Part shown: piece after piece, positions 33,840 to 48,841 of the stretch
Layout: each line of letters begins with the position of its first letter
Position numbering within the stretch: position 1 is the first letter of the stretch
Notes under the pieces: generated by a model
Databases searched by the model: none
The model's input: only the letters and a program-made list of their open reading frames with translations
Told to the model about the DNA's origin: nothing
Position numbers and translations under genes: made by a program
Assembly: GCF_913064665.1 (NCBI RefSeq)
Contig: NZ_CAJYBT010000021.1
Span: 1 to 58,554 of the forward strand
DNA: 58,554 bases
Source: an uncultured Thioclava sp.
GTDB lineage: Bacteria > Pseudomonadota > Alphaproteobacteria > Rhodobacterales > Rhodobacteraceae
Direction of reading: 5' to 3'

Positions 33840-34391
33840 TCAATTCCGCCAGAGGTCTTGCGGAATGTCGATGTCACAGGCTTCTTGGGCCGAGAGGGGA
33901 ATAAGCGACTTGTGCGGCAGGGCGCGCAGCAGCTCTCGGGCGCCTTGATCCTGTTCCGGGTCGGGCATGCGCCGCATATCATCTGCGACCAAAAGTGCCG
34001 GCGGCATCGAGATGCCGTTGAAAACGCAGGCGCGGCTGCCGCTGTCGCTATTCACCAAGGTTCGGAGTGTGTCAGTTGAAACGGAGGGCATGTCGCCCAA
34101 TACGAACAGCGCGCGTTCCGCGTGCAGCGTCATAGCGCAGTCGCGCGCCATTCGCCACGTCCGAGAGAGCGGCAGGCCCCGCTCAATCTGATGCACTTGG
34201 AACGACGCAGGGAGCGCTGCGCCCACCCTCTCGGAAGAGACGAGCGCAAGAAGCGCGTCGCACCCCGCTGCCTCGAGGGAGCGCGCAGCTGCAAGCACCA
34301 GAGGCGCGCCGTTCCAGTCTGCAAGAAGCTTGTCCTGAGAGCCGAAGCGACGAGAGGCGCCAGCGGCGAGAAGGATGCCGAGCGTGCGCAT
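33840..34391 (-). CDS. MobA-like NTP transferase, probable molybdenum cofactor cytidylyltransferase (MocA type)
   Basis: The protein has 183 residues. The nucleotidyltransferase opening is LGILLAAGASRRFGSQDKLL, with the later LFVLGDMPSVSTDTL metal-binding block and a C-terminal CDIDIPQDL. This is the MocA/CoxMSL-associated branch, which converts molybdopterin to MCD, the cofactor form used by xanthine oxidase-family enzymes. That fits the CoxM/S/L-type hydroxylase genes in the same block and the XdhC-like protein at its far end. It lies downstream of the NIPSNAP gene by 17 bases, in the same orientation. Confidence 0.85.
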   Translation of the reverse strand: MRTLGILLAAGASRRFGSQDKLLADWNGAPLVLAAARSLEAAGCDALLALVSSERVGAALPASFQVHQIERGLPLSRTWRMARDCAMTLHAERALFVLGDMPSVSTDTLRTLVNSDSGSRACVFNGISMPPALLVADDMRRMPDPEQDQGARELLRALPHKSLIPLSAQEACDIDIPQDLWRN

Positions 34392-34408
34392 GGTGACTTG
34401 CGCCCGGT

Positions 34409-34720
34409 TCAGTCAAGCGGAGAGAAAGCGGCGGGTTGCAGGAAGATGCTTTCCTGATGCACGAGATAGGGAAGGATCTTGGGCACGAAACCCTGCCAGT
34501 CCGAGTCTGCGCCGAGCTTGGCTCTTTGTGCGCTGCGGTGGCCATAATCTTCATAGGCCCAAAGGAAGGTGACCGCGTTCAGTACGCCACTGTCACTGAC
34601 CCAGCATCCGGCGAGCTTCGCGTATTGACTGATGATATGAAGCCCCTCGGCCTCATAGAGCTTGAGGAATTCAGGCGCTTTCCCGGGCGTGATGCGGTAG
34701 GTTCTTTGTTCATAGATCAT
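34409..34720 (-). CDS. NIPSNAP family protein
   Basis: The protein has 103 residues. The N-terminus MIYEQRTYRITPGKAPEFLKL and the central WVSDSGVLNAVTFLWAYEDYGHR match the ferredoxin-like dimeric alpha/beta barrel of NIPSNAP proteins, found in many catabolic clusters with no fixed activity. The ATG at 34720 is chosen because GGAG lies six bases upstream; the ATG 15 bases earlier has no good site. It diverges from the TetR gene, and a candidate operator lies between them, so it may be induced with the importer operon. It probably forms a small unit with the MocA-like gene. Confidence 0.82.
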   Translation of the reverse strand: MIYEQRTYRITPGKAPEFLKLYEAEGLHIISQYAKLAGCWVSDSGVLNAVTFLWAYEDYGHRSAQRAKLGADSDWQGFVPKILPYLVHQESIFLQPAAFSPLD

Positions 34721-34815
34721 GATGCGCTCCGGCATGAATGGCTTTGAATCTTAGGCACTGGTGCGCCACGATGTGTTAAGGCTATGACCAAATTCTTGGT
34801 GCACGCAACATTTAA

Positions 34816-34831
34816 GTCGTCACTCGACGAA
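34816..34831. promoter_or_regulatory. Candidate TetR operator 1 (tetR/NIPSNAP intergenic)
   Basis: GTCGTCACTCGACGAA contains perfect 5-bp arms TCGTC and GACGA around a 4-bp spacer. It is 14/16 identical to the site at 35732-35747 before the binding-protein gene. It lies 95 bases upstream of the NIPSNAP start and 96 bases upstream of the chosen tetR start, where a regulator could control both divergent genes. Confidence 0.6.
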
Positions 34832-34927
34832 AAAAGCTTTGCCCGCGCGCGTCGTGGGCTACTATGCAATATTAAGGGCGTTGCGTCCGACGTCATGGTT
34901 AAGAACAACGGATGCGAGGGGGATAAC

Positions 34928-35623
34928 GTGCAGGCCAAATCGACAGCAGCTCGGGGTGCGCCAAAAGCGCGCGGCACCGGAAACAAGCCTGGTTCGCCGC
35001 AGGGTTCTGTCCGGATGCCGTTCAACAAGCGCCGCGCTCAGATTCTGGACGTCGCGACCGACTTCTTTGCCGAGAATGGCCTTACGGGGCAGACGCGTCA
35101 GCTGGCGGAGAAGTGCGGCATTTCGCAACGCCTTCTCTACCGCTTCTTTCCGACGAAGGAAGATCTGCTCAAGGAGGTCTATAACCAAGAAATCCTTGGC
35201 GCATTCAAGGCAGTCTGGTTCGTGGATCTTCAGGATCGTTCGCGGCCGGTTTCAGAGCGCCTCGAGGCTTTCTATCGCGACTACCTTCAGTCTACATTGA
35301 CGCGCAAGTGGTTGCGGCTGCTCCTTTACGCCTCTCTGGCCGAAGCAAATATGGCGCCTGACTACATCGCGGCGATCATCATGCAGGTGCTAGAGGTCGT
35401 AATGCGCGAGGTGGCGCATGAGAAGGGGGTGTCCCTGCCCGAAGAGCCTGCATTGCTCCACGAGATGGCATGGACGCTGCATGGTGCGATCTCTCACTAC
35501 GCGATTAGGCGTCACATTTATCAGAGCAGCCTGTCCCTGTCCGAGGACCAGGTGGTGTCAATGCATGTTCGAGTGTTCCTTGCGGGCTTCGGGGACATGA
35601 TCGACGTGTGTCGCGGCGACTGA
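34928..35623 (+). CDS. TetR/AcrR family transcriptional regulator
   Basis: The protein has 231 residues. The N-terminal helix-turn-helix is RRAQILDVATDFFAENGLTGQTRQLAEKCGISQRLLYRFFPTKEDLLKEVY (in part, about residues 35-85), a classic TetR DNA-binding domain. The C-terminal ligand-binding domain is helical and unlike named families. GTG at 34928 is chosen as start because GAGGGGG lies five bases before it. The longer in-frame start at 34784 would place the candidate operator inside the gene. A start at ATG 35018 is also possible. It is divergent from NIPSNAP and upstream of the importer operon, and it probably represses both until a catabolic substrate binds. Confidence 0.88.
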   Translation: MQAKSTAARGAPKARGTGNKPGSPQGSVRMPFNKRRAQILDVATDFFAENGLTGQTRQLAEKCGISQRLLYRFFPTKEDLLKEVYNQEILGAFKAVWFVDLQDRSRPVSERLEAFYRDYLQSTLTRKWLRLLLYASLAEANMAPDYIAAIIMQVLEVVMREVAHEKGVSLPEEPALLHEMAWTLHGAISHYAIRRHIYQSSLSLSEDQVVSMHVRVFLAGFGDMIDVCRGD

Positions 35624-35731
35624 CCGCCACAATCAGCTACATTTCTTACGTTTTCAGCTGCGGCGATGGCCACGGATGCTGAAAATTTGTGCAATTTCCG
35701 TCGGGGAAGGTGAATCTTCACTTTTTCGTTT

Positions 35732-35747
35732 GTCGTCAATTGACGAA
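35732..35747. promoter_or_regulatory. Candidate TetR operator 2 (before the importer operon)
   Basis: GTCGTCAATTGACGAA has arms TCGTC and GACGA around AATT. It overlaps a possible -35 element, TTGACG (35740-35745). It lies 110 bases before the binding-protein start and matches the site at 34816-34831 at 14 of 16 positions. A repressor bound here would block polymerase. Confidence 0.6.
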
Positions 35748-35857
35748 TTAATAAATCGCCAATAGCGTCGATTCTTACAAACAAGTTCAACGGGAACGGT
35801 GCGCTGCGAAGGGACCTCAATCGAACTCGGGGCGGGCGGCCATGCAAAAGGAATCGA

Positions 35858-37192
35858 ATGATGCTCAAGGATAAGATGCGCCAGCTCGGGCGCCGGGATT
35901 TCCTCCGCTATTCGGCGGCGGGTGCAGGGGCGCTAATGGCGCCGGGTCTGGTTCGTCCGGCGCGCGCCGAGACCGCAGGGCTGACGATGCACACATGGTC
36001 CGCCGCAGTCGACACCGTGCAGAGTCACCTCAGCGCCTTCACGGCCGAAACCGGGATTCCCGTGAATTACGGAAATTCGCCCTGGGCGCAGTATCGCGAG
36101 GGCATGGTCGCAAAATTCGTTGGCGGTGCGCCGCTCGACGCGATGTGGGTGTCGGATTCGTGGCTGCCGGAATGGGCCGAGGCTGGCTGGATCGCTCCGG
36201 TCGATGAATTCGACAGCCTGATGAAATACAACGCTGAGGCCGAGGATTTCTGCACCCAGTCGATGACCTATGGCGGTCGGCAATACGGCCTGACCTATTA
36301 CACCGACTACATGGCGTTCCTTTATGACGAGGCGAAGCTCAAGGAAGCTGGCTTTGATGCGCCGCCGTCGAGCTGGGATGAGCTGGTGGAGCAGTCCCGG
36401 GTCATGAAGGAAAAGGGCATTGCCGAATATCCGATGATGCTCGCGATGGCGCAAGAAAGCTGGCTGATCGAGTTCATCTCGACGCTGGTCTACTCGCATG
36501 GCGGCCGACTGGTCGACGACAGCGGCTCGGCCGTTATGCAGGACTCGAAGGAAGGTGCTGTCGAGGCGCTGCAATGGGTGGTTGATGCGGTAGACAAGCA
36601 CAAGATCGTATCGCCCGCCTGCGTCGAAACCGGCGAACTGGCTGGCTTGAAGTCGTTTGCGGCGGGGAACCATGCCTTCGCGATGGTCGCAAAATACCGT
36701 CTGCGGATGCTCAACGACCCTGCGCAATCGCAGATCGCGGGCAATGTGAAGCAAGCGATGATGCCGCAAGGCGCGAACGGCTCTCACGCGACAGTGGGCT
36801 GGATGCGTTTCCATGGCATGTCGACGCAAGCCGCGCAGGACAAGGCGCGCGCCGAGAACACCGCGAAGCTGATCGAATGGTTCGGCGGCAAGTCGGACGG
36901 AGCCTACACGTTCCAGAAGCTCCTGTTCCTCGATATCGGGGCCGGGTTCGGTGTGAAGCCGCTGTTCGAGGATCCGGAGATCCGCGCGGCCTACGACTCT
37001 TATGGTGATGTCAATATGATCCAAGCCCAGCAGGCGCTTGCCCGCAAGAAGGACACGATCACCCCGTGGTTCGGTGAGTGGAACGACACCAATGGTTCGG
37101 CCTGGCAATCGGCGATCCTTGGAAATGTCGATGCCGCCGGGGCGGTCAAGAAATCTGCCGATCTGTGGAACGAGCTGAAGGACAGCTACTAA
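35858..37192 (+). CDS. ABC importer substrate-binding protein (family 1)
   Basis: The protein has 444 residues. A twin-arginine-like signal, LGRRDFLRYSAAGAGALMAPG, ends near ARAE at residue 36, so the protein may be exported folded through Tat. The mature part has the MalE-like family 1 fold: NSPWAQYREGMVAKFVGGAPLDAMWV, YGLTYYTDYMAFLYDEAKLKEAGF, and a late KFAMVAKYR-like segment AFAMVAKYRLRML. Family 1 proteins mostly bind oligosaccharides, polyols or glycerol phosphates. Here the operon partners are a molybdenum hydroxylase and an amidohydrolase, so the ligand is not assumed to be a sugar. A hairpin follows its stop codon. Confidence 0.9.
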   Translation: MMLKDKMRQLGRRDFLRYSAAGAGALMAPGLVRPARAETAGLTMHTWSAAVDTVQSHLSAFTAETGIPVNYGNSPWAQYREGMVAKFVGGAPLDAMWVSDSWLPEWAEAGWIAPVDEFDSLMKYNAEAEDFCTQSMTYGGRQYGLTYYTDYMAFLYDEAKLKEAGFDAPPSSWDELVEQSRVMKEKGIAEYPMMLAMAQESWLIEFISTLVYSHGGRLVDDSGSAVMQDSKEGAVEALQWVVDAVDKHKIVSPACVETGELAGLKSFAAGNHAFAMVAKYRLRMLNDPAQSQIAGNVKQAMMPQGANGSHATVGWMRFHGMSTQAAQDKARAENTAKLIEWFGGKSDGAYTFQKLLFLDIGAGFGVKPLFEDPEIRAAYDSYGDVNMIQAQQALARKKDTITPWFGEWNDTNGSAWQSAILGNVDAAGAVKKSADLWNELKDSY

Positions 37193-37200
37193 GCAGGCGA

Positions 37201-37224
37201 GGCGGGCCTTGTAGAAGGCCCGCC
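37201..37224 (+). other. Perfect hairpin after the binding-protein gene
   Basis: GGCGGGCCTT-GTAG-AAGGCCCGCC, with ten perfect pairs, begins 8 bases after the binding-protein stop and lies 32 bases before the first permease gene. No U-run follows. Such hairpins often stabilise the binding-protein mRNA or partly terminate transcription so that the binding protein is made in excess over the membrane parts. Confidence 0.65.
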
Positions 37225-37256
37225 GACTGTCGGGCAGGGCAACGGGAGAGCATGAC

Positions 37257-38168
37257 GTGGCGGATACAATGATTGGGGCGACACGCCCGAGATGGCGGCT
37301 AGGATACGAGGAGCGCAGCGCTATGCTGTTTCTTGCTCCGGTGATGGCTGTGCTGGGCGCGGTCGCGGTCTTCCCGATCGCCTATTCGCTTTATATCAGC
37401 TTCTTCAGCATCAAGCTGACGCGCCCGAACCGGACCCCTTTCGTTGGTCTCAAGAACTATACCGATCTTTTGGGGGACGAGGCTTTCTGGGGCGCGGTCT
37501 GGCGCACGGTGAGTTTCTCGCTCGTCTCAGTCAGCGCGATCGCCGTCATCGCATTGCTTGTCTCTCTGCTGCTGAACCAGGAATTCCGTGGTCGCCGTAT
37601 TCTCTCCACGATCCTGCTGGTGCCTTGGGCGATCCCCTATGTCGCGAACGCGCTGATGTGGAAATGGATCTACGATTCCAGCTATGGCGCGCTGAACGGC
37701 ATTCTTTATCAGCTTGATTTCATAGATAAATACATGGTCTGGCTGGGGGATCAGGACAAGACGCTGTTCTTGATTGCGAATGCTTTCGTGTGGAAGGAAG
37801 TGCCACTGGCCACGATCCTTCTTCTGGTCTCGCTCAAGTCGATTCCGGCGGATCTGTATTTGGCCGCGCGCGTCGATGGAGCGACGGTTTGGCAGCGCTT
37901 CGTGCATGTCACCCTGCCTGCGATGAAGCCCGGTTTCATGTTGGTGATGATCTACGAGACGATGATGGCGATCCGCCATTTCGACCTGTTCTTCGTGCTG
38001 ACCGAGGGTGGGCCTGGCAGCGCCTCGCATGTGCTGTCTTGGCACATCTATGTCGAAACCTTCCGCAACCTCTCTTTCGGTAGCGGGGCCGCGATGTCCT
38101 ACCTGCTCGCAATCGCGACCTTCGCACTTTCCTACCTCTTCATTCGAACGCTGGGGCGCAAGATCTGA
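37257..38168 (+). CDS. ABC importer permease, MalF/UgpA type
   Basis: The protein has 303 residues with six membrane segments. The first follows a short basic N-terminus (APVMAVLGAVAVFPIAYSLYISF). The EAA loop that contacts the ATPase is seen as IPADLYLAARVDGATVWQRFVHVTLPAMKPG. The GTG at 37257 is used, with GGGAG 8 bases upstream; an ATG 12 bases later is an alternative. It is the first of two permeases that would form the heterodimeric channel for the substrate delivered by the binding protein. It is 1 base from the second permease gene, so it is closely coupled. Confidence 0.92.
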   Translation: MADTMIGATRPRWRLGYEERSAMLFLAPVMAVLGAVAVFPIAYSLYISFFSIKLTRPNRTPFVGLKNYTDLLGDEAFWGAVWRTVSFSLVSVSAIAVIALLVSLLLNQEFRGRRILSTILLVPWAIPYVANALMWKWIYDSSYGALNGILYQLDFIDKYMVWLGDQDKTLFLIANAFVWKEVPLATILLLVSLKSIPADLYLAARVDGATVWQRFVHVTLPAMKPGFMLVMIYETMMAIRHFDLFFVLTEGGPGSASHVLSWHIYVETFRNLSFGSGAAMSYLLAIATFALSYLFIRTLGRKI

Positions 38169-38169
38169 C

Positions 38170-39135
38170 ATGACCAATATGCCTATCACCCCTCCCGTCG
38201 ACACGATCGACTACCGTCGCCGCCAGACCATGGCGCGCATTGTCCAGCGCGTTGTGATCTTGGTCTCTGCGATTGTCCTCGCGATTTATGTGCTCGCTCC
38301 GGTCTCCTGGCTCGTCTCCTCGGCGTTCCAGACCGAGACCGAGATCGTCTCGATCCCGCCGCACTGGATCCCCGATGAGCCCACGCTGGGCAATTTCAAG
38401 GCGATTTTCACGGCCGGAGACAGCGCGCCGGTTACCTACGAGACGCGCTCGGGCACCGATCCTGCGGCGGGTAACTTTATCCCCTCGACCGCGAAGAACC
38501 TGCTGCCCTCGATGGGGAACAGCCTGATCGTGGCGACGCTCGTCGTGATCCTTAACCTGCTTGTCGGCGTGCCAGCCGCCTATGCCATCGCGAAGATACG
38601 GTTCTGGGGGCGCAACGCTTCGGTCTACTTTATCCTGCTCACACGCGTCATTCCCGATATTGCGCTGGTCGTGCCCTTCTTCCTTGTGATCCGCAAACTG
38701 GGGATGCTCGACACGCTTTGGTCGCTGGTGATCACCTATCTCGCAGTCACGGTGCCATTCACGGTTTTCATCCTGATTCAGTATTTCGAGGGCTTGCCGG
38801 ACGAATTGGATAAAGCCGCGCGGGTTGATGGCTGTTCGCGGCTTCAGGCGCTGATCAAAGTGTTCCTGCCGCTCTCGCTGCCTTCGCTCGTGGCCGTGGT
38901 GCTGTTCACCTTCCTTACCAGCTGGAACGAGTTCCTGCTCGCCTTGATGTTCACGCAGACCTCGGCGTCGCAGACCCTGCCGATCCTGCTGGCCTCGTTC
39001 ACCTCTGATTTCACGGTGAGTTTCTCATTCCTCAACGCCGCAGGCGTGCTGGCGATAGTGCCGCCAGTCATCGTCGCCATCGTCTTCGAACGCTACATCG
39101 TTTCCGGTCTGACCGCCGGGGCAGTCAAAGGTTAG
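38170..39135 (+). CDS. ABC importer permease, MalG/UgpE type
   Basis: The protein has 321 residues. A first membrane helix (VVILVSAIVLAIYVLAPVSWLVSSAF) is followed by a long periplasmic loop of about 70 residues, longer than in E. coli MalG. Five more helices come next. The EAA loop is LPDELDKAARVDGCSRLQALIKVFLPLSLPSL. The ATG at 38170 is chosen directly after the first permease stop. It pairs with the upstream permease. The larger periplasmic loop could be part of substrate recognition. Confidence 0.92.
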   Translation: MTNMPITPPVDTIDYRRRQTMARIVQRVVILVSAIVLAIYVLAPVSWLVSSAFQTETEIVSIPPHWIPDEPTLGNFKAIFTAGDSAPVTYETRSGTDPAAGNFIPSTAKNLLPSMGNSLIVATLVVILNLLVGVPAAYAIAKIRFWGRNASVYFILLTRVIPDIALVVPFFLVIRKLGMLDTLWSLVITYLAVTVPFTVFILIQYFEGLPDELDKAARVDGCSRLQALIKVFLPLSLPSLVAVVLFTFLTSWNEFLLALMFTQTSASQTLPILLASFTSDFTVSFSFLNAAGVLAIVPPVIVAIVFERYIVSGLTAGAVKG

Positions 39136-39148
39136 AAAGGATAACGTT

Positions 39149-40258
39149 TTGGCCCGGATCCGTTTCACAAACGTCAACAAGAAATACGCCAACGGCTTCC
39201 ATGCCGTTCGCGATCTCAACCTCGATATCGAGGATCGTGAGTTCATCGTCCTGCTTGGCCCCTCGGGCTGTGGCAAATCCACGACCCTCAATATGATTGC
39301 GGGGCTCGAGGAGGTATCGGATGGTGATCTGATCTTTGACGAGCAGGTTGTGAATTACGTTCCGCCGCACAAGCGCGACGTCGCGATGGTATTCCAGAGC
39401 TACGCGCTTTATCCGCACAAGACGGTCTATGAGAATATCGGCTTTGGACTGCGGATGCGGAACGTGCCGAAGGAAGAAATCGACAAGAGCGTGCGCGACG
39501 CCGCGCAGAAACTCGAGATTTCGCATCTGCTCGATCGGCGCCCGTCGCAGCTTTCGGGTGGCCAGCGTCAGCGTGTGGCGCTGGGCCGGGCGATGGTGCG
39601 TGCGCCGTCGGTCTTCCTTATGGACGAACCTCTTTCGAACCTTGACGCGGCCTTGCGCATCTCGATGCGCGCGGAGATCAAGGAACTCCATCGCGCAATG
39701 GAGACGACTTTCGTCTACGTGACCCACGATCAGGCCGAGGCTCTCACGCTCGCGGACCGTATCGTGGTGATGAACGATGGGGTGGTGCAGCAGATCGGCA
39801 CTCCGGACGACATCTATGAGCGACCGGCGAACACTTTCGTCGCGTCTTTCCTCGGAAGCCCGCCGATCAACTATTTTGACGGCGTGCTCGAGGCCGGATC
39901 GAACGGTGGAATGGATTTTGTACGCGACGGGCTGCGTCTTGTGCTGCCGGAGGCGCACGCGGCGCGCCTGAAAGGACAGGAGGGCCGCGAGGTCCGGCTG
40001 GGAATCCGGGCTGAGGATGTCGCGGAAGGCCCCGCGGAGCGTGAGGTCAACGCGCTTAGCGGCACCGTGAACTCGGTGCTTCCGGTCGGCTCGGATCAAT
40101 ATCTGGGAATGGATTTCGGGGGAAAAGAGCTGTTCTTCCGCGTCGGCAAGGATCTGCGCCATGCCTTCGGCGAAAAAATCACGCTCGCTGTGGATCTCAA
40201 CCGCCTGCATGTCTTTGATCGTGAAACCGGTCAGTCGTTGATCTGGAACGCAGTATAA
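39149..40258 (+). CDS. ABC importer ATP-binding protein, MalK/UgpC type
   Basis: The protein has 369 residues. Walker A is LLGPSGCGKSTTLNMIAGLEE (GPSGCGKST), the Q-loop is VFQSYALYPHKTV, the signature is LSGGQRQRVALGRAMV, and Walker B is VFLMDEPLSNLDA with the switch histidine in YVTHDQAEALTLADR. The C-terminal third (about 235-369) has TOBE-like regulatory segments. The start is TTG at 39149, with AAAGGATAAC upstream. It energises the two permeases. MalK-type ATPases can serve several importers. Confidence 0.93.
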   Translation: MARIRFTNVNKKYANGFHAVRDLNLDIEDREFIVLLGPSGCGKSTTLNMIAGLEEVSDGDLIFDEQVVNYVPPHKRDVAMVFQSYALYPHKTVYENIGFGLRMRNVPKEEIDKSVRDAAQKLEISHLLDRRPSQLSGGQRQRVALGRAMVRAPSVFLMDEPLSNLDAALRISMRAEIKELHRAMETTFVYVTHDQAEALTLADRIVVMNDGVVQQIGTPDDIYERPANTFVASFLGSPPINYFDGVLEAGSNGGMDFVRDGLRLVLPEAHAARLKGQEGREVRLGIRAEDVAEGPAEREVNALSGTVNSVLPVGSDQYLGMDFGGKELFFRVGKDLRHAFGEKITLAVDLNRLHVFDRETGQSLIWNAV

Positions 40259-40262
40259 AGCG

Positions 40263-41132: not shown

Positions 41133-41626
41133 ACGCTTCGACACACGAGCCCCTGACGCTTTCACTAAGCGTGAATGGCGAAACACACGATCTGCAGGTG
41201 CCCGCGCGCAAGCTGCTGTCGGATGTGCTGCGCGAGGATCTTGGCCTGACAGGCACACATGTGGGCTGCGAACACGGCGTCTGCGGCGCCTGCACCGTGC
41301 TGATCGATGGGCGTCCGGCCCGCGCCTGCCTGACCTTCGCCGCCCAGATGGAGGGGCATGAGGTCACGACGATCGAGGCCGTGGGACGGCCCGATGCGCT
41401 TTCGGCGCTCCAGCAGGCGCTGCACGAGGAACATGGGCTGCAATGCGGTTTCTGCACAGCTGGCATCGTGATGACCTTCGAGCATTACCTGCGCGAGAAC
41501 CCGACCCCCACCGCAAGCGAGGTGCGCGATGTGTTGTCGGGCAATCTGTGCCGCTGCACCGGCTATCAGAATATCGTGGCCGCGGTGTTGAAGGCTGCGG
41601 CACGGATGCGTGGAGAGTCGGTATGA
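41129..41626 (+). CDS. [2Fe-2S] small subunit of xanthine oxidase-family hydroxylase (CoxS type)
   Basis: The protein has 165 residues and carries two [2Fe-2S] clusters. The N-terminal plant ferredoxin-like domain has C47, C52, C55 and C67 (GCEHGVCGACTVLIDGRPARAC in part). The C-terminal four-helix domain has C106, C109, C141 and C143 (QCGFCTAGIVM and GNLCRCTGYQNI). All eight ligands are present. It relays electrons from the molybdenum site to FAD. It overlaps CoxM by 4 bases and the large-subunit gene by 4 bases. Confidence 0.95.
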   Translation: MNASTHEPLTLSLSVNGETHDLQVPARKLLSDVLREDLGLTGTHVGCEHGVCGACTVLIDGRPARACLTFAAQMEGHEVTTIEAVGRPDALSALQQALHEEHGLQCGFCTAGIVMTFEHYLRENPTPTASEVRDVLSGNLCRCTGYQNIVAAVLKAAARMRGESV

Positions 41627-44001
41627 GCAGCGCCTTCACCGAGATCGGCCGCGCCTTGCCGCGCAAGGAAGATCGACGTCTCGTCACTGGCCGCGGGCGC
41701 TATCTCGACGATCTTGCCGTTCCCGGCGCGCTGCATGTGAGCTTCGTGCGCTCGCCCCACGCCCATGCGCGCATCCTCGGAATCGACAGCGCCGAAGCCT
41801 CTGAAATGCCGGGGGTCGTTGGTATCTTCACCGGGCGCGACCTTGATCAATTGACGACGCGGCTGCGCATCGCGCCGCCGATTGAGGGGCTGCAACCGAC
41901 CGAACTCACGACGCTTCCGATCGAGAAAGTGCGTTTCCACGGCGATCCGGTGGCCTGCGTGGTCGCGACCGATCGCTACCTAGCCGAGGATGCCGCCGAA
42001 TGTGTCACCGTCGAATATGACCAACTCCCTGCGGTGACCTCGATCGCGCAGGCCCTCGCGCCCGACGCGGTTCTGGTCGATGAAACCTTGTCCAGCAACA
42101 TGGTCTCGCATCAGAGCCTGTGTGTCGGCGATCCTGCGGCACGTCGGGCCGAGGCGCATCGCGTGATCGAGGCCCGTTTCGCGCTCCATCGCCACACGCA
42201 TGTCCCGCTGGAGACGCGCGGTTGCCTTGCCGATTGGGATGACGGAAGAGCGCATCTGAACATGCATATCGGCAATCAGGTCCCGCACCCTTTGCGCAGC
42301 CAGCTCGCCAAGCGGCTGGGTCTGTCGGAAAGTCAGGTCACGGTGATCAGCCCCGATGTGGGCGGTGCGTTCGGTCAGAAGATCGCGCTCTACCGCGAGG
42401 AACTCACGGTGGCGGCCCTCTCGCGTCACTTGCGCCGCCCGCTGCGTTGGCGCGAAGATCGCATGGAGAACCTGATGGCCGCCGCTCATGCGCGGGAATA
42501 CGAGTGCCGCACCCGCACCTCGGTAAGCGAAACCGGACGGATTCTCGGTCTTGAGCTTGAGCTCGACGAGGATTTTGGCAGCTACTGCTTTTTCCCGGCC
42601 AATTACATGGCCCGGGTTATCGCACTTATCATGACCGGCCCCTATCGGATCCAAGACTACGCCTATGAGGTCCGCGTCGCGCTGACCAACAAATGCGGCG
42701 CTGGCCCGATGCGCGCGCCAATGGCGGTTACAAGCTGGGTGATGGAGGGCACGATCGACGCCATTGCCCGCGAGCTTGGCCTCGACCCGATCGAGGTGCG
42801 CCGTATCAATGCGCTTGGCCCGGAAGACTTGCCCTATAAGATGCCCACGGGCGAACTCCTCGAGGATGTCACCCCTCGGGAAACGCTTGAGACTGCGGTT
42901 GCCGCGATCGATGTCGCGGCATTCCGCGAGCGGCAAGCGCAGGCACTTTGCGAAGGCCGGTATCTGGGGCTCGGGCTGTGCACGGTGATCGAAAGCACGA
43001 CCTACGGATCGGAATTCTACAAGTCTGCCGGCATTCCGGGATCAGGGCATGAAGCGGCTTGGGTACGGATCGAACCGAGCGGGGCGGTCAATGCCTCTGT
43101 CGGGTTGATGGGCACGGGACAGGGCTACGAGAGCCCGCTTGCGCAGGCGGTTGCCGAAGGGCTTGGTGTGCGCTCGGAAGATGTCACGGTCCACATGGGC
43201 AACACCGATGTCGCGCCCTATGGCATGGGCAGCCGCGGTGGACGCGGCGCGACCGCCGGGGGCGGAACGCTCTATCTCTGTGGGCTCAAGGCGCGCGAGC
43301 GGGTGCTCGTGATTGCGGCCTCAATGCTGGATCTCAACGGGGCTGGCGAGCTGCGAATGCGCGCGGGTCAGATCGAACGAATGATTGACGACAACTGGCA
43401 GGAGACGGGTCTCACGCTGGCGGATGTCGCGCGGCGCGCCTATCTTGACCCGTTAGCGCTGCCCGAGGGGATCGCGCCCGGGCTCGACTTCTCGCATAGC
43501 TACGATCCGCCTGCGATGACCTATTCCAATTCGACCCATGCTTGCGAGGTCGAAGTCGATCCGCGCACCGGCGCAATTTCGATCGACCGGTATCTCGTCG
43601 CCGAGGATTGCGGCACCGTTCTCAACCCGATCGTGGTGCGCGGCCAGCAGCAAGGTGCGATCGCGATGGGGCTAAGCGGCGCGCTGCTCGAACAGGTTGT
43701 TTATGACGGCTCGGGGCAGAACCTCTCTGCGACGCTCGCCGATTACCTTGTCGCGTCCCCGAACGAATTGCCCGAGTTCGAAATCCTACATCACCATACT
43801 CCGAACCGCCGCACCCCCGCTGGGATCAAGGGCATGGCCGAAGGCGGAGTGATGGGCGCAATCGGCGTGATCGCCAATGCAGTGAGCGATGCGCTCGCGC
43901 CTCGCGGCGTGACGATTGAGCGTCTTCCGCTGACCCCGCAATCCATTCGCGCGCTCCTGCGAGAGGCAGCGCCCAGCCCAAAGAAAAGGACCCAGCCGTG
44001 A
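41623..44001 (+). CDS. Molybdopterin-binding large subunit of xanthine oxidase-family hydroxylase (CoxL-like, not CO dehydrogenase)
   Basis: The 792-residue catalytic subunit binds MCD and hydroxylates or oxidises its substrate with water as oxygen source. The N-terminal a/b hammerhead (RKEDRRLVTGRGRYLDDL) and Mo-binding segments such as VISPDVGGAFGQKIALYRE are present. The catalytic glutamate is probably E740 in GIKGMAEGGVMGA. At the active-site loop where true CO dehydrogenase has AYRCSFR, this protein has GPMRAP (G361-P366), keeping only the arginine. That argues against CO oxidation and for an aldehyde or N-heterocycle substrate. The usual length is about 750-810 residues. Confidence 0.92.
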   Translation: MSSAFTEIGRALPRKEDRRLVTGRGRYLDDLAVPGALHVSFVRSPHAHARILGIDSAEASEMPGVVGIFTGRDLDQLTTRLRIAPPIEGLQPTELTTLPIEKVRFHGDPVACVVATDRYLAEDAAECVTVEYDQLPAVTSIAQALAPDAVLVDETLSSNMVSHQSLCVGDPAARRAEAHRVIEARFALHRHTHVPLETRGCLADWDDGRAHLNMHIGNQVPHPLRSQLAKRLGLSESQVTVISPDVGGAFGQKIALYREELTVAALSRHLRRPLRWREDRMENLMAAAHAREYECRTRTSVSETGRILGLELELDEDFGSYCFFPANYMARVIALIMTGPYRIQDYAYEVRVALTNKCGAGPMRAPMAVTSWVMEGTIDAIARELGLDPIEVRRINALGPEDLPYKMPTGELLEDVTPRETLETAVAAIDVAAFRERQAQALCEGRYLGLGLCTVIESTTYGSEFYKSAGIPGSGHEAAWVRIEPSGAVNASVGLMGTGQGYESPLAQAVAEGLGVRSEDVTVHMGNTDVAPYGMGSRGGRGATAGGGTLYLCGLKARERVLVIAASMLDLNGAGELRMRAGQIERMIDDNWQETGLTLADVARRAYLDPLALPEGIAPGLDFSHSYDPPAMTYSNSTHACEVEVDPRTGAISIDRYLVAEDCGTVLNPIVVRGQQQGAIAMGLSGALLEQVVYDGSGQNLSATLADYLVASPNELPEFEILHHHTPNRRTPAGIKGMAEGGVMGAIGVIANAVSDALAPRGVTIERLPLTPQSIRALLREAAPSPKKRTQP

Positions 44002-44891
44002 CAGAACAGAAACCCAGCGTCGGCTTCATCGGACTCGGAATCATGGGGCAGCACATGGCGGGGCACATCCTCGCCGCGGGTTACCCTCTCAATATCTACA
44101 ACCGCACCCGCGCCAAGGGCGATGCTCTGGTCGCTCAGGGCGCTCAGTGGTTTGACAGTCCCGGTGCCGTGGCCGCAGTCAGCGATATCACGATCACCAT
44201 CGTGGGCTACCCCGCCGATGTCGAGCAAGTCTACCTCTCCAAGGGCGGGATCGTCGCCAAGGCGCGACCGGGAGCCGTGTTGATCGACATGACCACGTCG
44301 AGCCCGGCCTTGGCCGCGAGGATCGCGCAGGCTGCGCTTGAACGCGGGATTTCGGCGCTCGACGCTCCAGTGTCGGGGGGCGACGTCGGTGCGAAGGCGG
44401 GAAAGCTTGCGATTATGGTGGGGGGCGAGACGAGCGCCTTCAATCAGGTGCTCCCGGTATTGGAATTGATGGGGGCGAATATTGCGCTGATGGGCAAGGC
44501 GGGTTCTGGCCAGCACACCAAGATGGCCAACCAGATTGCCATCGCCTCGACCATGCTTGCGGTGGCTGAAAGCGTCAGCTACGCGCGTGTCGCCGGTCTG
44601 AACCCGCATCAGGTTCTCAAGGTAATCGGAACCGGGGCGGCCTCGAGTTTCCTGCTCAACGGGCTTGGGCCGAAGATGGTGGACGAGGATTTCGCACCTG
44701 GTTTCTTCATCCACCACTTCGTCAAGGACATGACCATTGCGCTGGAAGAGGCCAAAAAACTGGGTCTCGATCTGCCCGGTCTCGCGCTGGCGCGCAGGTT
44801 GTATCTCACGCTTATCGACAATGGTTTCGGAGAAGAGGGCACGCAGTCGCTCTACCGGGCTTATAACGCGATCCATGCGGAGGCGCGGTGA
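43998..44891 (+). CDS. 3-hydroxyisobutyrate dehydrogenase-family NAD(P)-dependent reductase
   Basis: The protein has 297 residues. The Rossmann opening is VGFIGLGIMGQHMAGHILAAGY. The substrate motif is DAPVSGGDVGAKAGKLAIMVGG, and the catalytic lysine is in GSGQHTKMANQIAI. This beta-hydroxyacid dehydrogenase family includes tartronate semialdehyde reductase, 3-hydroxyisobutyrate dehydrogenase and 2-(hydroxymethyl)glutarate dehydrogenase. It would interconvert a beta-hydroxy acid and its semialdehyde. GTG start at 43998 overlaps the CoxL-like stop; its own stop overlaps the CoxG-like ATG. The tight overlaps suggest it acts on a product of the hydroxylase pathway; the substrate is open. Confidence 0.88.
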   Translation: MTEQKPSVGFIGLGIMGQHMAGHILAAGYPLNIYNRTRAKGDALVAQGAQWFDSPGAVAAVSDITITIVGYPADVEQVYLSKGGIVAKARPGAVLIDMTTSSPALAARIAQAALERGISALDAPVSGGDVGAKAGKLAIMVGGETSAFNQVLPVLELMGANIALMGKAGSGQHTKMANQIAIASTMLAVAESVSYARVAGLNPHQVLKVIGTGAASSFLLNGLGPKMVDEDFAPGFFIHHFVKDMTIALEEAKKLGLDLPGLALARRLYLTLIDNGFGEEGTQSLYRAYNAIHAEAR

Positions 44892-45481
44892 TGCGGTTCG
44901 AGGGAGATCACCTGATCCCGGCTGATCCCGAAACGGTGTGGAGCGGGCTCAACGACCCCGAGGTGCTGCGCCGCGCGATCCCGGGCTGCGAGTCGATGGA
45001 ACAGACTGGTGAGGCCGAATATACTGCGACGGTTGTGGCGCGGGTCGGCCCGGTCTCGGCCCGCTTTCGCGGCAAGGTCGAGTTCTCCGATCTGGTGCCC
45101 CCGGTCTCTTACCGGATCAGCGGGCGCGGGCAGGGCGGGCCTGCGGGTTTCGCCAAGGGGGGCGCGGACATCCGGCTCGCGCATGAAGGCGAGGGCACGC
45201 GGTTGTCCTATGTCGCTGATGTCGAGGTGGGCGGCAAACTGGCCGCAGTCGGCGGGCGGTTGATTCAGGGCGTGGCGCGCAAGAATGCCGAGGATTTCTT
45301 CAATGCCTTCTCGCGGGTCGTGACCGGCGAGGTGGATACGGGGGTTCCTGCAAGCGACGGCGCGATCCAACCGGGGGCGATGGCCGCCGTCGCGGCGGGG
45401 CATATCCCGCTCATCGACCGTGTCGCATGGCTTTTGGTCGGGCTCGGGCTTGGGCTCGGGGGCTGCTGGCTCTTTGGTTGA
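44891..45481 (+). CDS. CoxG-like SRPBCC-family protein
   Basis: The protein has 196 residues. The CoxG domain (about 1-150) opens MRFEGDHLIPADPETVWSGL and contains NDPEVLRRAIPGCESM, typical of CoxG/DUF1857-like START-fold proteins encoded with molybdenum hydroxylases. A hydrophobic C-terminus (VAWLLVGLGLGLGGCWLFG) could anchor it to the membrane. In Oligotropha, CoxG helps attach CO dehydrogenase to the cytoplasmic membrane. By analogy this one may recruit the hydroxylase to the inner membrane, near quinone. The ATG overlaps the upstream stop (TGATG). Confidence 0.85.
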   Translation: MRFEGDHLIPADPETVWSGLNDPEVLRRAIPGCESMEQTGEAEYTATVVARVGPVSARFRGKVEFSDLVPPVSYRISGRGQGGPAGFAKGGADIRLAHEGEGTRLSYVADVEVGGKLAAVGGRLIQGVARKNAEDFFNAFSRVVTGEVDTGVPASDGAIQPGAMAAVAAGHIPLIDRVAWLLVGLGLGLGGCWLFG

Positions 45482-45492
45482 AAGGACGCGCG

Positions 45493-46665
45493 ATGAATAT
45501 CACCCCGGCGATCAAGGCGATGGAAGACCAGCTTGTCGAATGGCGGTGCGCGCTGCATCTCCGCCCCGAACTGGCCTTCGAGGAACACGAGACCGCCGCC
45601 TTCATCGCCGCGCGTCTGCGCTGGTTCGGACTCGAGGTTCATGAGGGGCTGGCCGGGACCGGTGTGATCGGCGTCCTTCGCAATGGCGAGGGCCCGTGCG
45701 TTGGTCTGCGCGCCGATATCGACGCGCTGCCGATAGCGGAATTGACCGGTGCCACCTATGCCTCGGAAATTCCCGGCAAGATGCATGCCTGTGGCCATGA
45801 CGGGCATACCACGATGCTTCTGGGGGCCGCGCAGGCGATGGCGGCCGATCCGCCGGGGCCGGGCACGGTGGTGTTCATCTTCCAGCCCGCTGAGGAAAAC
45901 GAAGGCGGCGCGCGGGTGATGATCGAAGATGGATTGCTCGAACGTTTCCCGCTCGACAGCATCTATGCGCTGCACAACTGGCCGGGGCTGGAGGCAGGCA
46001 GGATCGCGATGCGCGCAGGTCCCGTGATGGCCGCTTTCGACACGTTCGAATTGAAGGTGATCGGCAAGGGATCGCATGGCGCGATGCCGCATGAGGGGAT
46101 CGACCCGATCACACTGGCCGCACAGTTGCAACTGGCCTGGCAAACCATCGTCAGCCGCGCGGTGGATCCGACCGATGCGACGGTGATCTCGGTGACGCAG
46201 ATCCATGCCGGCCACACGCTTAATGTCATTCCGGAAGAGGTGATCTTGCGCGGAACGGTGCGAACCTTGCGACCCGAAACGCGCGACTTCGTGCAGACCG
46301 AGATGACGCACCGCGCCGAAATGATCGCCGCAGCCTATCGCGCAACTGCGCAGCTCACATATCAGCGCCGCTACCCGGCCACGATTAACGCGTCCGAACC
46401 GGCCGAAACTGCGCGCCGCGCAGCCGAGGCGATCTTGGGCCGCGAGGCGGTGCAGACCGATTACGCCCCCAGCATGGCGAGCGAGGATTTCGCTTTTCTG
46501 CTGGAAAAGGTGCCCGGCGCTTATGGCTGGATTGGCAATGGATCGGCTGAGGGCGGGCGCAACCTGCACAGCCCGCACTACGATTTCAACGATGCGATCC
46601 TGCCGCTGGGCGTGCAGTTTTTCGTCGAGGTTTCCCGCCGTGCGCTGACCGGGGCGAACGATTGA
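45493..46665 (+). CDS. M20-family amidohydrolase
   Basis: This 390-residue metal-dependent hydrolase belongs to the hippurate/N-acyl-amino acid/IAA-amide group. The metal site is seen as MHACGHDGHTTMLLGAAQAM (C100, H102, D103, H105), with the Glu pair in QPAEENEGGARVMIEDGL. The dimerisation (lid) domain runs from about residue 180 to 295, and a final HSP-like H is in NLHSPHYDFND. It cleaves an amide bond to a small acid. The ATG at 45493 follows the CoxG-like stop by 11 bases. Its presence suggests that the imported compound, or an intermediate after hydroxylation, contains an amide or N-acyl group. Confidence 0.9.
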   Translation: MNITPAIKAMEDQLVEWRCALHLRPELAFEEHETAAFIAARLRWFGLEVHEGLAGTGVIGVLRNGEGPCVGLRADIDALPIAELTGATYASEIPGKMHACGHDGHTTMLLGAAQAMAADPPGPGTVVFIFQPAEENEGGARVMIEDGLLERFPLDSIYALHNWPGLEAGRIAMRAGPVMAAFDTFELKVIGKGSHGAMPHEGIDPITLAAQLQLAWQTIVSRAVDPTDATVISVTQIHAGHTLNVIPEEVILRGTVRTLRPETRDFVQTEMTHRAEMIAAAYRATAQLTYQRRYPATINASEPAETARRAAEAILGREAVQTDYAPSMASEDFAFLLEKVPGAYGWIGNGSAEGGRNLHSPHYDFNDAILPLGVQFFVEVSRRALTGAND

Positions 46666-46675
46666 GGGGGCGGCC

Positions 46676-47596
46676 TTGACCCATCCTGCCGCGCAAGATC
46701 CGTGGTTCGAACTGGCACGGTCCGACGCGCCCGGCGCGATCGCGGTGATTTCTGGCATCGAAGGCCCGGCTTATCGTAATGTCGGCACGGCGATGGCGAT
46801 CTTGCATGACGGTCGGCGCGTTGGGGCGCTCAGCGCGGGCTGTATCGAGGAAGATGTGGTCGAACATGCGCGTGCTGCGCTGGCCGACGGGCAGGTTCGC
46901 AAGCTGCACTATGGCGCGGGCTCGCCCTTTTTCGATTTGAAACTGCCCTGCGGAGGTGCACTTGAGATCACCGTTATCCCTGCGCCAGACCGGGCGTTGT
47001 TGTGCGAGCTTGCTGCAAGGCGCGCACGCCGCGAAGAGACTGCACTGTGGCTAAGCGCTGCTGGCGGTTTGGATTTCGCACAAGAGGGCGCGGAGCCCGG
47101 CGAACCGGGCGCGCTACGCGTCGCGTTTCGCCCCGAGCCGCGCTTTGTGATCTTTGGCGCAGGTGCCGAAGCGGTGTTCTTCTCGGATCTGGTGCGGGCC
47201 ACCGGCGCGCCGCATCTTCTGTTCACGCCTGAGGACGCCACATTCGCCAATGCCATCGCTGCAGGTTGCTCGGTTCGTATGTTGGACCGCGCTGGGATCC
47301 TTCCCGAGGCCGCTATCGACGCGCGCACGGCCGTGATCTTTCTTTTTCACGATCACGATTGGGAACTGGAGATCCTTGAGGCGGCGCTCGCAACCCCCGC
47401 TTTCTACATCGGCGCGCAGGGCAGTGTGCGCACGCAAAACCGACGGCTGGAAGGTTTGCGGGCACGCGGTATCGATGCGGCGACGCGCGCGCGGGTGCGC
47501 GGACCGATCGGGTTGATCCGCTCTGCGCGCGATCCGCGACTGCTGGCCGTATCGGTGCTGGCCGAGGTGCTGGCTCAGGTGGAAAGCGGCGTCTGA
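46676..47596 (+). CDS. XdhC/CoxI-family maturation protein
   Basis: The protein has 306 residues. An N-terminal XdhC-CoxI domain is visible (AIAVISGIEGPAYRNVGTAMAIL..., GALSAGCIEEDVVEHARAAL). The C-terminal XdhC Rossmann domain opens with RFVIFGAGAEAVFFSDLV and contains FYIGAQGSVRTQNRRLEGL. XdhC proteins bind the molybdenum cofactor, promote sulfuration of the Mo centre and load it into xanthine oxidase-family enzymes. This one is probably dedicated to the upstream hydroxylase. It starts with TTG, 10 bases after the amidohydrolase stop, and ends the operon. Confidence 0.88.
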   Translation: MTHPAAQDPWFELARSDAPGAIAVISGIEGPAYRNVGTAMAILHDGRRVGALSAGCIEEDVVEHARAALADGQVRKLHYGAGSPFFDLKLPCGGALEITVIPAPDRALLCELAARRARREETALWLSAAGGLDFAQEGAEPGEPGALRVAFRPEPRFVIFGAGAEAVFFSDLVRATGAPHLLFTPEDATFANAIAAGCSVRMLDRAGILPEAAIDARTAVIFLFHDHDWELEILEAALATPAFYIGAQGSVRTQNRRLEGLRARGIDAATRARVRGPIGLIRSARDPRLLAVSVLAEVLAQVESGV

Positions 47597-48682: not shown

Positions 48683-48841
48683 GCCACTTGAGTCCGAAGG
48701 TCCCCCCCTCACACCGGATCCAGCAAATCCAAAGCAAATTGCCGAGAGCGAAACTGATCTCGGCGATTTGTCTTATGCCGCAGAGCAGCCAATACTCCTG
48801 ATCGAGAGATTCAGAGGAGATCGGCAAATAGCGGTCAAGCT

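What the first reader, a model, noticed from the sequence alone, without database searches (positions are those of the whole stretch)
33840..47596. Self-contained import-and-oxidation operon built around a non-CO molybdenum hydroxylase
Seen: ABC importer genes (binding protein, two permeases, ATPase) run directly into CoxM/S/L-type hydroxylase, a beta-hydroxyacid dehydrogenase-family enzyme, a CoxG-like protein, an M20 amidohydrolase and an XdhC-like protein, with 4-base overlaps or gaps under 15 bases from the ATPase onward. A MocA-like gene on the other side of the regulator completes cofactor supply. Known: CoxG, XdhC and MocA proteins serve xanthine oxidase-family enzymes. Inference: the block takes up one compound, oxidises it, and cleaves an amide. 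I know of no described pathway with this exact gene set.
Basis: partly seen in the sequence, partly recalled or inferred. Interest (0 to 1): 0.78.

Follow-up and report, generated by a model that had tools for sequence, protein, structure and literature searches.

The report
Uptake-and-oxidation operon of unknown substrate
A bacterium of the Thioclava group carries a compact, self-regulated block of genes that appears to bring one unknown compound into the cell and oxidise it with a molybdenum enzyme; relatives suggest that import and oxidation are the old core and the amide-cutting enzyme a later addition.

Summary
In detail: every named gene is there, with the spacing described. The host shares its genus with Thioclava marina.

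Among 27 loci with an orthologous large subunit (CoxL-like), an importer is linked in 20, FeS and FAD subunits in 10, the beta-hydroxyacid dehydrogenase in 15, the M20 enzyme in 8, and the MocA-like gene plus xdhC in 5, all Thioclava. So "imports and oxidises one compound" holds up; the amide step and private cofactor supply are lineage-specific.

New: a palindrome TCGTCANTTGACGA, overlapping a conserved promoter-like TTGACG-N17-TAGCGT, precedes the importer in 9 of 9 TetR-bearing loci. In 8 of 8 Thioclava carriers every exact copy lies at the cluster. This looks like a one-regulon switch.

Also new: 17 orthologues lack adjacent FeS and FAD genes yet keep the molybdenum-site motifs.

The enzyme is not a typical CO dehydrogenase; its nearest solved relative is quinoline 2-oxidoreductase. 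The substrate stays unknown. My searches of open full text showed no pathway with this gene set. New variant of a known kind.

The parts
33840..34391 (-). MobA/MocA-like NTP transferase, presumed molybdenum cofactor nucleotidyltransferase
   Evidence: Pfam NTP_transf_3 7.3e-21; MocA model 49.2 bits, under its cut-off of 186.45; linked only in the 5 Thioclava-type loci of 27
34409..34735 (-).
   Evidence: Pfam NIPSNAP 1.5e-24; present in the same 9 of 27 loci as TetR, though in L056 at another place in the cluster; closest solved chain 5ixu, E 1.4e-45
34817..34830 (.). operator-like site O1 between NIPSNAP and tetR (one mismatch in the window)
34895..35623 (+). TetR-family regulator (mechanical ORF begins at 34784; start moved to the ATG at 34895 because homology in L004, L055, L057 and L058 begins at residues 41-48)
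   Evidence: Pfam TetR_N 1e-11
35733..35746 (.). operator-like site O2, perfect palindrome TCGTCAATTGACGA
   Evidence: TCGTCANTTGACGA in 9 of 9 TetR-bearing loci; all exact copies in 8 of 8 carrier genomes of the genus lie at the cluster
35740..35768 (+). promoter-like TTGACG-N17-TAGCGT whose first hexamer lies inside O2
   Evidence: not listed by the consensus scan, TAGCGT matching only 3 of 6 of TATAAT
35858..37192 (+). periplasmic substrate-binding protein, family 1, with an RRDFL twin-arginine-like leader
   Evidence: SBP_bac_1 1e-25; nearest solved chains mostly named sugar-binding; leader read by eye from the translation
37257..38168 (+). ABC permease, UgpA/MalF type
38170..39135 (+). 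ABC permease, UgpE/MalG/GlcU type (ATG start counted by eye from the translation)
39149..40258 (+). ABC ATPase, UgpC/MalK type
   Evidence: NF008653 above cut-off
40263..41132 (+). CoxM-like FAD subunit with AGGQSL and TIGG motifs
   Evidence: FAD_binding_5 1.7e-46, CO_deh_flav_C
41129..41626 (+). CoxS-like 2x[2Fe-2S] subunit with 8 cysteines
   Evidence: Fer2, Fer2_2
41623..44001 (+). Mo-binding large subunit of a molybdenum hydroxylase; loop TNKCGAGPMRAPM, Glu in KGMAEGG
43998..44891 (+). beta-hydroxyacid dehydrogenase family (HIBADH / tartronate semialdehyde reductase-like)
   Evidence: NAD_binding_2 8.3e-52, NAD_binding_11; below all listed NCBIfam cut-offs
44888..45481 (+). CoxG-like protein with a C-terminal hydrophobic stretch
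   Evidence: COXG 3.1e-36; solved CoxG 8uds_D 3e-9
45493..46665 (+). M20 amidohydrolase, ILL2/YxeP-like
   Evidence: Peptidase_M20 4.9e-46; TIGR01891 above cut-off
46676..47596 (+). XdhC-like Mo-cofactor insertion factor
   Evidence: XdhC_CoxI, XdhC_C; one of 2 XdhC_CoxI matches in this genome

Best explanation
This is a TetR-controlled catabolic regulon for one small, polar organic compound. Without inducer, TetR sits on O2, over the first promoter hexamer, and blocks the importer-hydroxylase operon; O1 lets it control itself and the divergent NIPSNAP-mocA pair. The inducer is probably the imported compound or a product of it. The compound is caught by a twin-arginine-exported family-1 binding protein and brought in by a UgpC/MalK-type ABC importer. 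A cytoplasmic three-subunit molybdenum hydroxylase, nearest in sequence to quinoline 2-oxidoreductase, adds an oxygen atom from water. Electrons pass through two 2Fe-2S clusters and FAD to the respiratory chain, with CoxG holding the enzyme at the membrane. The beta-hydroxyacid dehydrogenase then interconverts a semialdehyde and a beta-hydroxy acid derived from the product. In some lineages an M20 enzyme opens an amide, before or after oxidation, and in Thioclava XdhC and a MocA-like enzyme supply the cofactor privately. Shown by sequence: gene content, orthology, gene linkage, conservation of the palindrome and promoter-like element, catalytic motifs. Inferred: that TetR binds the palindrome, repression as the mode of control, the order of steps, membrane tethering, the substrate. 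Likeliest substrate class: a polar N-heteroaromatic compound or an aldehyde (about 0.5 together, neither tested).
For: Families and spacing. Importer linked to the large subunit in 20 of 27 orthologous loci, on both sides of the main split of the family tree. Palindrome in 9 of 9 TetR-bearing loci: window, four Thioclava, two other genomes of the same family, Ciceribacter, Burkholderia. In the genus the exact 14-mer occurs in 9 of 16 genomes: in all 8 carriers only at the cluster, and once in 8 non-carriers, where none of the cluster's proteins matches the 3 kb around it; the reversed control pattern hits once in 16 genomes. Catalytic Glu, GG[AGS]FGQK and GQGYE conserved. Best solved relative quinoline 2-oxidoreductase, 505.5 bits, against 434.5, 429.2, 386.3 and 385.8 for four CO dehydrogenase sequences. 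CoxG homologues as membrane anchors: PMC11962113 (passages). XdhC with MocA-type genes beside hydroxylases of this kind is known: PMC2997495 (passages).
Against: No substrate, transcript or protein was measured. A family-1 binding protein suggests a sugar-like ligand rather than a heteroaromatic one. CoxG is absent from G279 and not seen in any of the 17 loci without FeS/FAD subunits, nor in L006, so tethering is not universal. The second promoter hexamer is far from the sigma-70 consensus; the consensus scan did not list it and found 1 promoter-like site in the region against 3.4 in shuffles. O1 is imperfect in the window, L007, L056 and L058 and was not found at up to 2 mismatches in L057. 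HIBDH is missing from 12 of 27 loci; 10 of these show at least 1 kb downstream of the large subunit, 2 do not. In L056 (Burkholderia) NIPSNAP is not divergent from tetR, so that arrangement is not fixed.
Confidence: 0.6

Rival explanations
1. Ring-opening pathway for an N-heterocycle: the hydroxylase makes a lactam, the ring opens to an amide, M20 hydrolyses it, and the HIBDH-like enzyme reduces a 2-formyl acid. This is the logic of nicotinate fermentation (hydroxylase, enamidase, 2-(hydroxymethyl)glutarate dehydrogenase; the last step recalled) or of quinaldine breakdown (hydroxylase, later N-acetylanthranilate amidase).
For: Nearest solved hydroxylase attacks quinoline; 2-hydroxymethyl glutarate dehydrogenase 3cky matches the HIBDH at 1.2e-45; M20 and HIBDH occur together in 8 of 27 loci; in 5 loci of the branch without FeS/FAD subunits (L009, L011, L012, L013, L016) a homologous FAD_binding_3 monooxygenase follows (L009 copy identified). 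E. barkeri route: PMC9304392 passages. Quinaldine route: PMC3534580 passages.
Against: No ring-reducing or ring-cleaving family among the cluster's proteins; M20 is not the fold of either precedent amidase (enamidase fold recalled; the other is alpha/beta-hydrolase by a cited title); M20 not seen in 19 of 27 loci; 3cky is only sixth among HIBDH matches.
Confidence: 0.3
2. Oxidation of a sugar-derived or other aldehyde to an acid, the product then being handled by the HIBDH-like enzyme as in tartronate semialdehyde or threonate metabolism, with M20 removing an N-acyl group from an amino-sugar derivative.
For: Sugar-type importer; glyceraldehyde dehydrogenase models are the best NCBIfam hits of the M and S subunits and second best of L; 2-hydroxy-3-oxopropionate reductase and L-threonate dehydrogenase models match the HIBDH.
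Against: All these enzyme scores lie under the models' cut-offs; nearest solved large subunit is a heteroaromatic hydroxylase; an FAD_binding_3 monooxygenase accompanies 5 loci without FeS/FAD subunits.
Confidence: 0.25
3. Two unrelated operons that happen to be adjacent: a sugar importer followed by a hydroxylase operon.
For: Wider gaps in the importer part (234 bases tetR-sbp, 64 bases sbp-perm1); ABC genes not seen beside 7 of 27 orthologues, 5 of which show at least 2 kb upstream.
Against: Only 4 bases between ATPase and coxM; linkage in 20 of 27 loci across alpha- and betaproteobacteria; the one conserved palindrome and promoter-like element lies ahead of the whole run.
Confidence: 0.05
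4. Ordinary aerobic CO dehydrogenase operon.
For: CoxM/S/L/G-type subunits; NF040766 is the top NCBIfam family for L (535.4 bits).
Against: 535.4 against a cut-off of 950 and 485.7 against 991.15; loop GPMRAPM where CO dehydrogenases align with AYxCSFR.
Confidence: 0.01

Closest known systems
Quinoline 2-oxidoreductase (large subunit PDB 1t3q_B)
   Same: Full-length homology of the large subunit, catalytic Glu region aligned; three-subunit layout (recalled for the quinoline enzyme)
   Different: Active loop PMRAPM instead of the aligned quinoline-enzyme loop; importer, HIBDH and M20 attached
Quinaldine 4-oxidase pathway of Arthrobacter Rue61a (PMC3534580, passages and reference titles)
   Same: Mo hydroxylase starts the pathway and an amidase is part of it
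   Different: Amidase is alpha/beta-hydrolase fold (cited title); no HIBDH or family-1 importer recalled
Nicotinate catabolism of Eubacterium barkeri (PMC9304392, passages; 3cky)
   Same: Mo hydroxylase and amide hydrolysis, and (recalled) a HIBADH-family dehydrogenase, in one route
   Different: No enamidase or 6-hydroxynicotinate reductase family named among the cluster's proteins; the nicotinate dehydrogenase chain 3hrd_A is only tenth among solved relatives of L
Aerobic CO dehydrogenase (CoxMSL with CoxG)
   Same: Subunit types and a CoxG-like protein
   Different: No CO active loop; below the family cut-offs
[quoted passage not shown] the original paper not seen)
   Same: A dehydrogenase of a heterocycle for which a CoxG homologue is proposed as membrane anchor
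   Different: Sequence not compared here; importer and HIBDH not recalled

Membership tests
Xanthine oxidase family (molybdenum hydroxylases) | MoCoBD_1, MoCoBD_2 and a/b-hammerhead domains in L, 2x2Fe-2S in S, FAD domain in M | tested here: met
   eight cysteines in S
Xanthine oxidase family (molybdenum hydroxylases) | catalytic glutamate near the C-terminus of L | tested here: met
   KGMAEGG in the window; the Glu is kept in all 26 aligned rows that reach this point, a 27th (L024) being cut by its contig end
Xanthine oxidase family (molybdenum hydroxylases) | Mo-cytosine-dinucleotide cofactor and hydroxylation by water | not testable with these tools
   needs the purified enzyme
Aerobic CO dehydrogenase | AYxCSFR active loop binding the Cu-S-Mo centre (role of the loop recalled) | tested here: not met
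   window has TNKCGAGPMRAPM
Aerobic CO dehydrogenase | score over curated family cut-offs | tested here: not met
   535.4 of 950 and 485.7 of 991.15
Quinoline 2-oxidoreductase | closest solved large subunit | tested here: met
   1t3q_B 2e-150, best of 41 distinct sequences
Quinoline 2-oxidoreductase | acts on quinoline | not testable with these tools
   needs an assay; loop residues differ
MocA (Mo cofactor cytidylyltransferase) | TIGR03310 cut-off of 186.45 bits | tested here: not met
   49.2 bits; it may still work like MocA
UgpC-type ABC ATPase | NF008653 cut-off of 432 bits | tested here: met
   457.4 bits
Local TetR-type regulator | HTH domain plus conserved palindrome overlapping a promoter-like element next to its gene | tested here: met
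Local TetR-type regulator | binds the palindrome and represses | not testable with these tools
   needs protein-DNA binding and expression tests
Tartronate semialdehyde reductase / 3-hydroxyisobutyrate dehydrogenase | equivalog cut-offs | tested here: not met
   246 of 340.75; 182.5 of 291.6
DoeB2 (N-acetyl-diaminobutanoate deacetylase) | NF038260 cut-off of 550 bits | tested here: not met
   347.8 bits; generic TIGR01891 is met (342.7 over 153.75)

The most novel reading that the evidence does not exclude
The family splits once into three-subunit enzymes, like the window's, and a branch in which the large subunit has no FeS and FAD partner genes beside it but keeps its Mo-site motifs. In 10 of these 17 loci it still sits directly behind the same importer. 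The novel reading: the large subunit works without dedicated electron-transfer subunits, by passing electrons to another acceptor, borrowing a shared FeS/FAD pair, or catalysing a non-redox step, in a previously undescribed import-coupled pathway whose core is importer plus Mo subunit plus beta-hydroxyacid dehydrogenase. The window's complete enzyme would be the natural reference for testing this.
Probability: 0.25. Interest if true: 0.72.

Novelty: new variant of a known kind. Interest (0 to 1): 0.5.

Why it matters
It turns a loose guess into a small testable unit: one regulator, two operator-like sites, one promoter-like element, one importer, one hydroxylase. Because the palindrome is conserved from Thioclava to Ciceribacter and Burkholderia, any cultured carrier with a reporter could reveal the inducer and so the substrate. 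The same family offers a natural comparison between a complete molybdenum hydroxylase and orthologous large subunits without partner genes beside them, which bears on how these enzymes hand on their electrons.

Tried and rejected
CO dehydrogenase: rejected on the active loop and the cut-offs. Recent horizontal transfer of the block within the genus: not shown. The block sits in different flanks, but its fourfold-site identity to the window's (64.7% in G254, 63.4% in G1033, 14 genes) is only moderately above that of 10 core genes beside the insertion (55.8% and 58.5%). The core averages printed (64.2% and 69.0%) include antisense and overlapping frames and are replaced. Integration machinery: no tRNA in the window; no direct or inverted match of 11 bases between the two edges of the 23-kb insertion. 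Between the block's own edges one 11-base direct match was seen (33697 and 47801); no chance level was worked out for it and I draw nothing from it. Binding-protein structure: the AlphaFold model failed (mean pLDDT 40.3), so no fold search was run. A wider regulon in the genus: not seen, the exact 14-mer lies only at the cluster in carriers; the site in one non-carrier, G1044, lies between genes that look by eye like an AraC-type regulator and a peptide-ABC permease (translations, no domain search). Literature: ten searches; aimed at the gene set, at the genus 29, 81, at lone large subunits 63, at precedents 42, 43, 62. None showed this gene set in the listings seen; one search found 409 papers with three of its four terms, of which 12 were listed, and subscription journals are mostly not held.

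Sampling limits: 22 of the 27 loci came from one scan that needs exact matches to peptide patterns of the window's CoxL, so the sample is biased towards its kin and the counts are not frequencies in nature. The window and four Thioclava loci are close relatives and count as nearly one lineage. Three further Thioclava carriers (G1035, G1039, G1043) were not fetched whole and are not in the table. Presence used tblastn E 1e-6 and identity cut-offs set by me (35-50%). In the family, class and phylum searches only the best 2-3 first-look candidates per genome were scored.

Full report
WHAT IS THERE. I add a NIPSNAP-family gene at 34409-34735 on the minus strand, between the MocA-like gene and tetR, and move the likely start of tetR from 34784 to 34895, because homology in L004, L055, L057 and L058 begins only at residues 41-48. 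The binding protein begins with RRDFL followed by a hydrophobic stretch, which looks by eye like a twin-arginine leader (translation). The 'MocA' is a MobA/MocA-like NTP transferase that does not reach the MocA cut-off.

WHICH ORGANISM. The host genome G000 shares its genus with G254. G254's hit on contig 2 (420610-422982) falls inside the contig range of L003, Thioclava marina, and both contigs are 867681 bases long. So the host is of that genus by the search's own grouping.

THE ENZYME. The large subunit matches quinoline 2-oxidoreductase best among solved chains (505.5 bits; four CO dehydrogenase sequences at 434.5, 429.2, 386.3 and 385.8). The active loop is TNKCGAGPMRAPM where CO dehydrogenases align with AYxCSFR. 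PMRAPM and GQGYE are kept in all 27 rows of the motif alignment; the catalytic Glu is kept in the 26 rows that reach it (row L024 is cut by its contig end; row L026 is a second copy of the L003 locus; the Ciceribacter gene was left out because of a frame change). FeS and FAD subunits keep eight cysteines and flavin-type motifs. CoxG carries a C-terminal hydrophobic stretch. Published work shows CoxG homologues anchoring dehydrogenases to membranes (PMC11962113, passages), and XdhC-type factors, in places beside MocA-type genes, serving hydroxylases of this family (PMC2997495, passages).

HOW RARE AND WHERE. In the family draw there is a clear gap: 4 of 295 genomes hold a copy at 73% identity or more (G000, G254, G168, G279), and every other match listed in that call is 39% or less (the list is cut and at most 3 candidates per genome were scored). 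In wider draws, 1 of 385 class genomes and 1 of 398 phylum genomes, in both cases G000 itself, reach E 1e-180. In the genus 8 of 16 carry it. Named relatives outside Thioclava: a Ciceribacter thiooxidans plasmid (72%) and Burkholderia cenocepacia (64%), then Geminicoccaceae, Acetobacteraceae-type genomes, Caldovatus, Phreatobacter and others at 56-61%.

WHAT IS CORE. I tabulated 27 loci with an orthologous large subunit: 22 from the scan, the window, and L055-L058. Importer genes linked: 20 of 27; in two of the seven without, L020 and L021, the upstream flank is under 1 kb and cannot tell. FeS plus FAD subunits: 10 of 27. HIBDH: 15 of 27. CoxG: 8 of 27. M20: 8 of 27. TetR plus NIPSNAP: 9 of 27. 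MocA-like plus XdhC: 5 of 27, all Thioclava-type. G168 has the cluster up to CoxG but no M20; G279 has M20 but no CoxG. L006 has importer, FeS, FAD and large subunits but no HIBDH, CoxG or M20 in 4 kb downstream. So importer plus large subunit is the most widely kept linkage, HIBDH next; amide cleavage and cofactor supply look like additions. Many contigs are short, so absences are lower-grade evidence than presences, and the sample is biased towards relatives of the window's CoxL, with five near-identical Thioclava rows.

A BRANCH WITHOUT PARTNER GENES. In the tree (26 orthologues, 10 paralogues, quick method, SH-aLRT support only; the Ciceribacter row left out) the orthologues form one group (100). 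Taking the paralogues as outside, eight three-subunit loci form one group (99), Geminicoccaceae L006 joins the rest (81, weak), and all 17 loci without linked FeS and FAD genes form one group (99). The program warned of long branches among the paralogues and for L024 and L056. Ten of the 17 show at least 2 kb on both sides of the gene. 211 of 762 gap-free columns are invariant and only 3 are fixed differences between the two kinds (9 and 16 rows; L024 and L026 dropped). The genomes behind seven of these loci do hold FeS-subunit genes elsewhere (4 to 12 Fer2_2 matches each); in the nine genomes of this branch searched with the window's CoxS, no match exceeded 57% identity. In Caldovatus sediminis I looked at 9 further stretches: five more large subunits stand without M or S within the stretch, two sets are complete, one M-S pair stands without an L, and one S stands alone. 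So lone large subunits outnumber free pairs in what I looked at there, and a shared pair remains possible. In five loci of this branch (L009, L011, L012, L013, L016) a homologous FAD_binding_3 monooxygenase follows (L009 copy identified). L009 also carries an HpcH/HpaI aldolase and L016 an FAA hydrolase: surroundings of the aromatic-catabolism type, though whether they share an operon is not known.

THE SWITCH. Upstream of the binding protein, in 9 of 9 loci with TetR, lies TCGTCANTTGACGA, whose second half contains the first hexamer of TTGACG-N17-TAGCGT (TAGCGT in 7, TAGCTT in L055, TATTTT in L056). Outside Thioclava these TetR proteins are only 55-62% identical to the window's. A second site lies before tetR: exact in L003, L004, L005 and L055; one mismatch in the window and L007; two in L056 and L058; none found at up to two in L057 (the better strand counted). 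In L056 NIPSNAP is not next to tetR but near the M20 gene. Across 16 genus genomes the exact 14-mer occurs in 9: in all 8 carriers only at the cluster (in three of them, G1035, G1039 and G1043, judged by its distance of 6-7 kb from CoxL), and once in a non-carrier. The reversed control pattern occurs once. In the window, 6 matches at up to two mismatches, that is 3 places each read on both strands, were seen against a shuffled mean of 1.16; the third place, inside coxL, has two mismatches and is probably chance. A site over a promoter element suggests repression; that is inference. The consensus promoter scan did not list this promoter and found fewer sites than in shuffled sequence (1 against 3.4), so the promoter claim rests on conservation alone.

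WHERE THE BLOCK SITS. Window 25.9-48.9 kb is an insertion: in four relatives (G1036, G1046, G254, G1033) the core genes at its two edges are adjacent, 2 to 46 bases apart in the alignments. It holds a tetrathionate-reductase block (25.95-33.5 kb), found elsewhere in G254 and G1036, and the present block. Among the window and the four other Thioclava loci the block aligns over about 13.75 kb with sharp edges, except between the close relatives L004 and L005, where the flanks align too (the flanks held for the four loci are about 2.2 kb on one side and 6.4 kb on the other). The unit therefore sits in at least four genomic contexts in the genus. No repeats or tRNA mark the 23-kb insertion, and divergence at fourfold sites does not show recent transfer.

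MECHANISM AND SUBSTRATE. I commit to uptake of one small polar compound, hydroxylation by the Mo enzyme, and further handling by the HIBDH-like enzyme, under a TetR-type switch (0.6). Heteroaromatic (0.3) and aldehyde or sugar-derived (0.25) substrates remain rivals: the hydroxylase points to the first, the importer to the second. The M20 enzyme's nearest solved relatives are ILL2 and YxeP, consistent with cutting an N-acyl or amino-acid conjugate; where in the pathway it acts is open.

NOVELTY. Each part is known; the set, its core and its switch did not turn up in my searches of open full text (gene set; genus: 29, 81; lone large subunits: 63). I rate it a new variant of a known kind, interest 0.5, with the branch lacking partner genes as the most novel open reading.

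Noticed in passing
window 25917-48971: A 23-kb insertion upstream of aroA: in four relatives the core genes at its two edges are adjacent. It stacks a tetrathionate-reductase block and the present block, which sit apart elsewhere in the genus.
   Followed up: partly
L008-L024 (17 loci; Caldovatus, Acetobacteraceae-type, Phreatobacter and others), around the large-subunit gene: Orthologous Mo subunits without linked FeS and FAD genes, forming one branch of the tree with the Mo-site motifs kept.
   Followed up: partly
L069:2072-6892 (Caldovatus sediminis): A more distant lone large subunit (35%) also has a HIBDH-family gene nearby (31%), so the pairing recurs outside the orthologous family.
   Followed up: no
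L067:4469-5784 (Caldovatus sediminis): An M plus S pair with no L within the 11 kb looked at: candidate shared partner for lone large subunits.
   Followed up: no
window 31006-33731 (-): TtrS-like histidine kinase with a phosphonate-binding-protein-type sensor domain, next to a FixJ/TtrR-type regulator; both below the models' cut-offs; belongs to the tetrathionate block.
   Followed up: no
window 47602-48971: No recognised gene between xdhC and aroA; the ORF at 48272-48682 reminded me of a recombinase tail, but Pfam gave only one sub-threshold match, to an unrelated family.
   Followed up: partly
L055 about 13.9-14.8 kb: CoxL of Ciceribacter thiooxidans is split in two overlapping frames (sequencing error or decay); left as found.
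   Followed up: no
window 35858-37192: Binding protein has a twin-arginine-like leader (RRDFL), which would mean export in folded form; read by eye, no signal-peptide program run.
   Followed up: no
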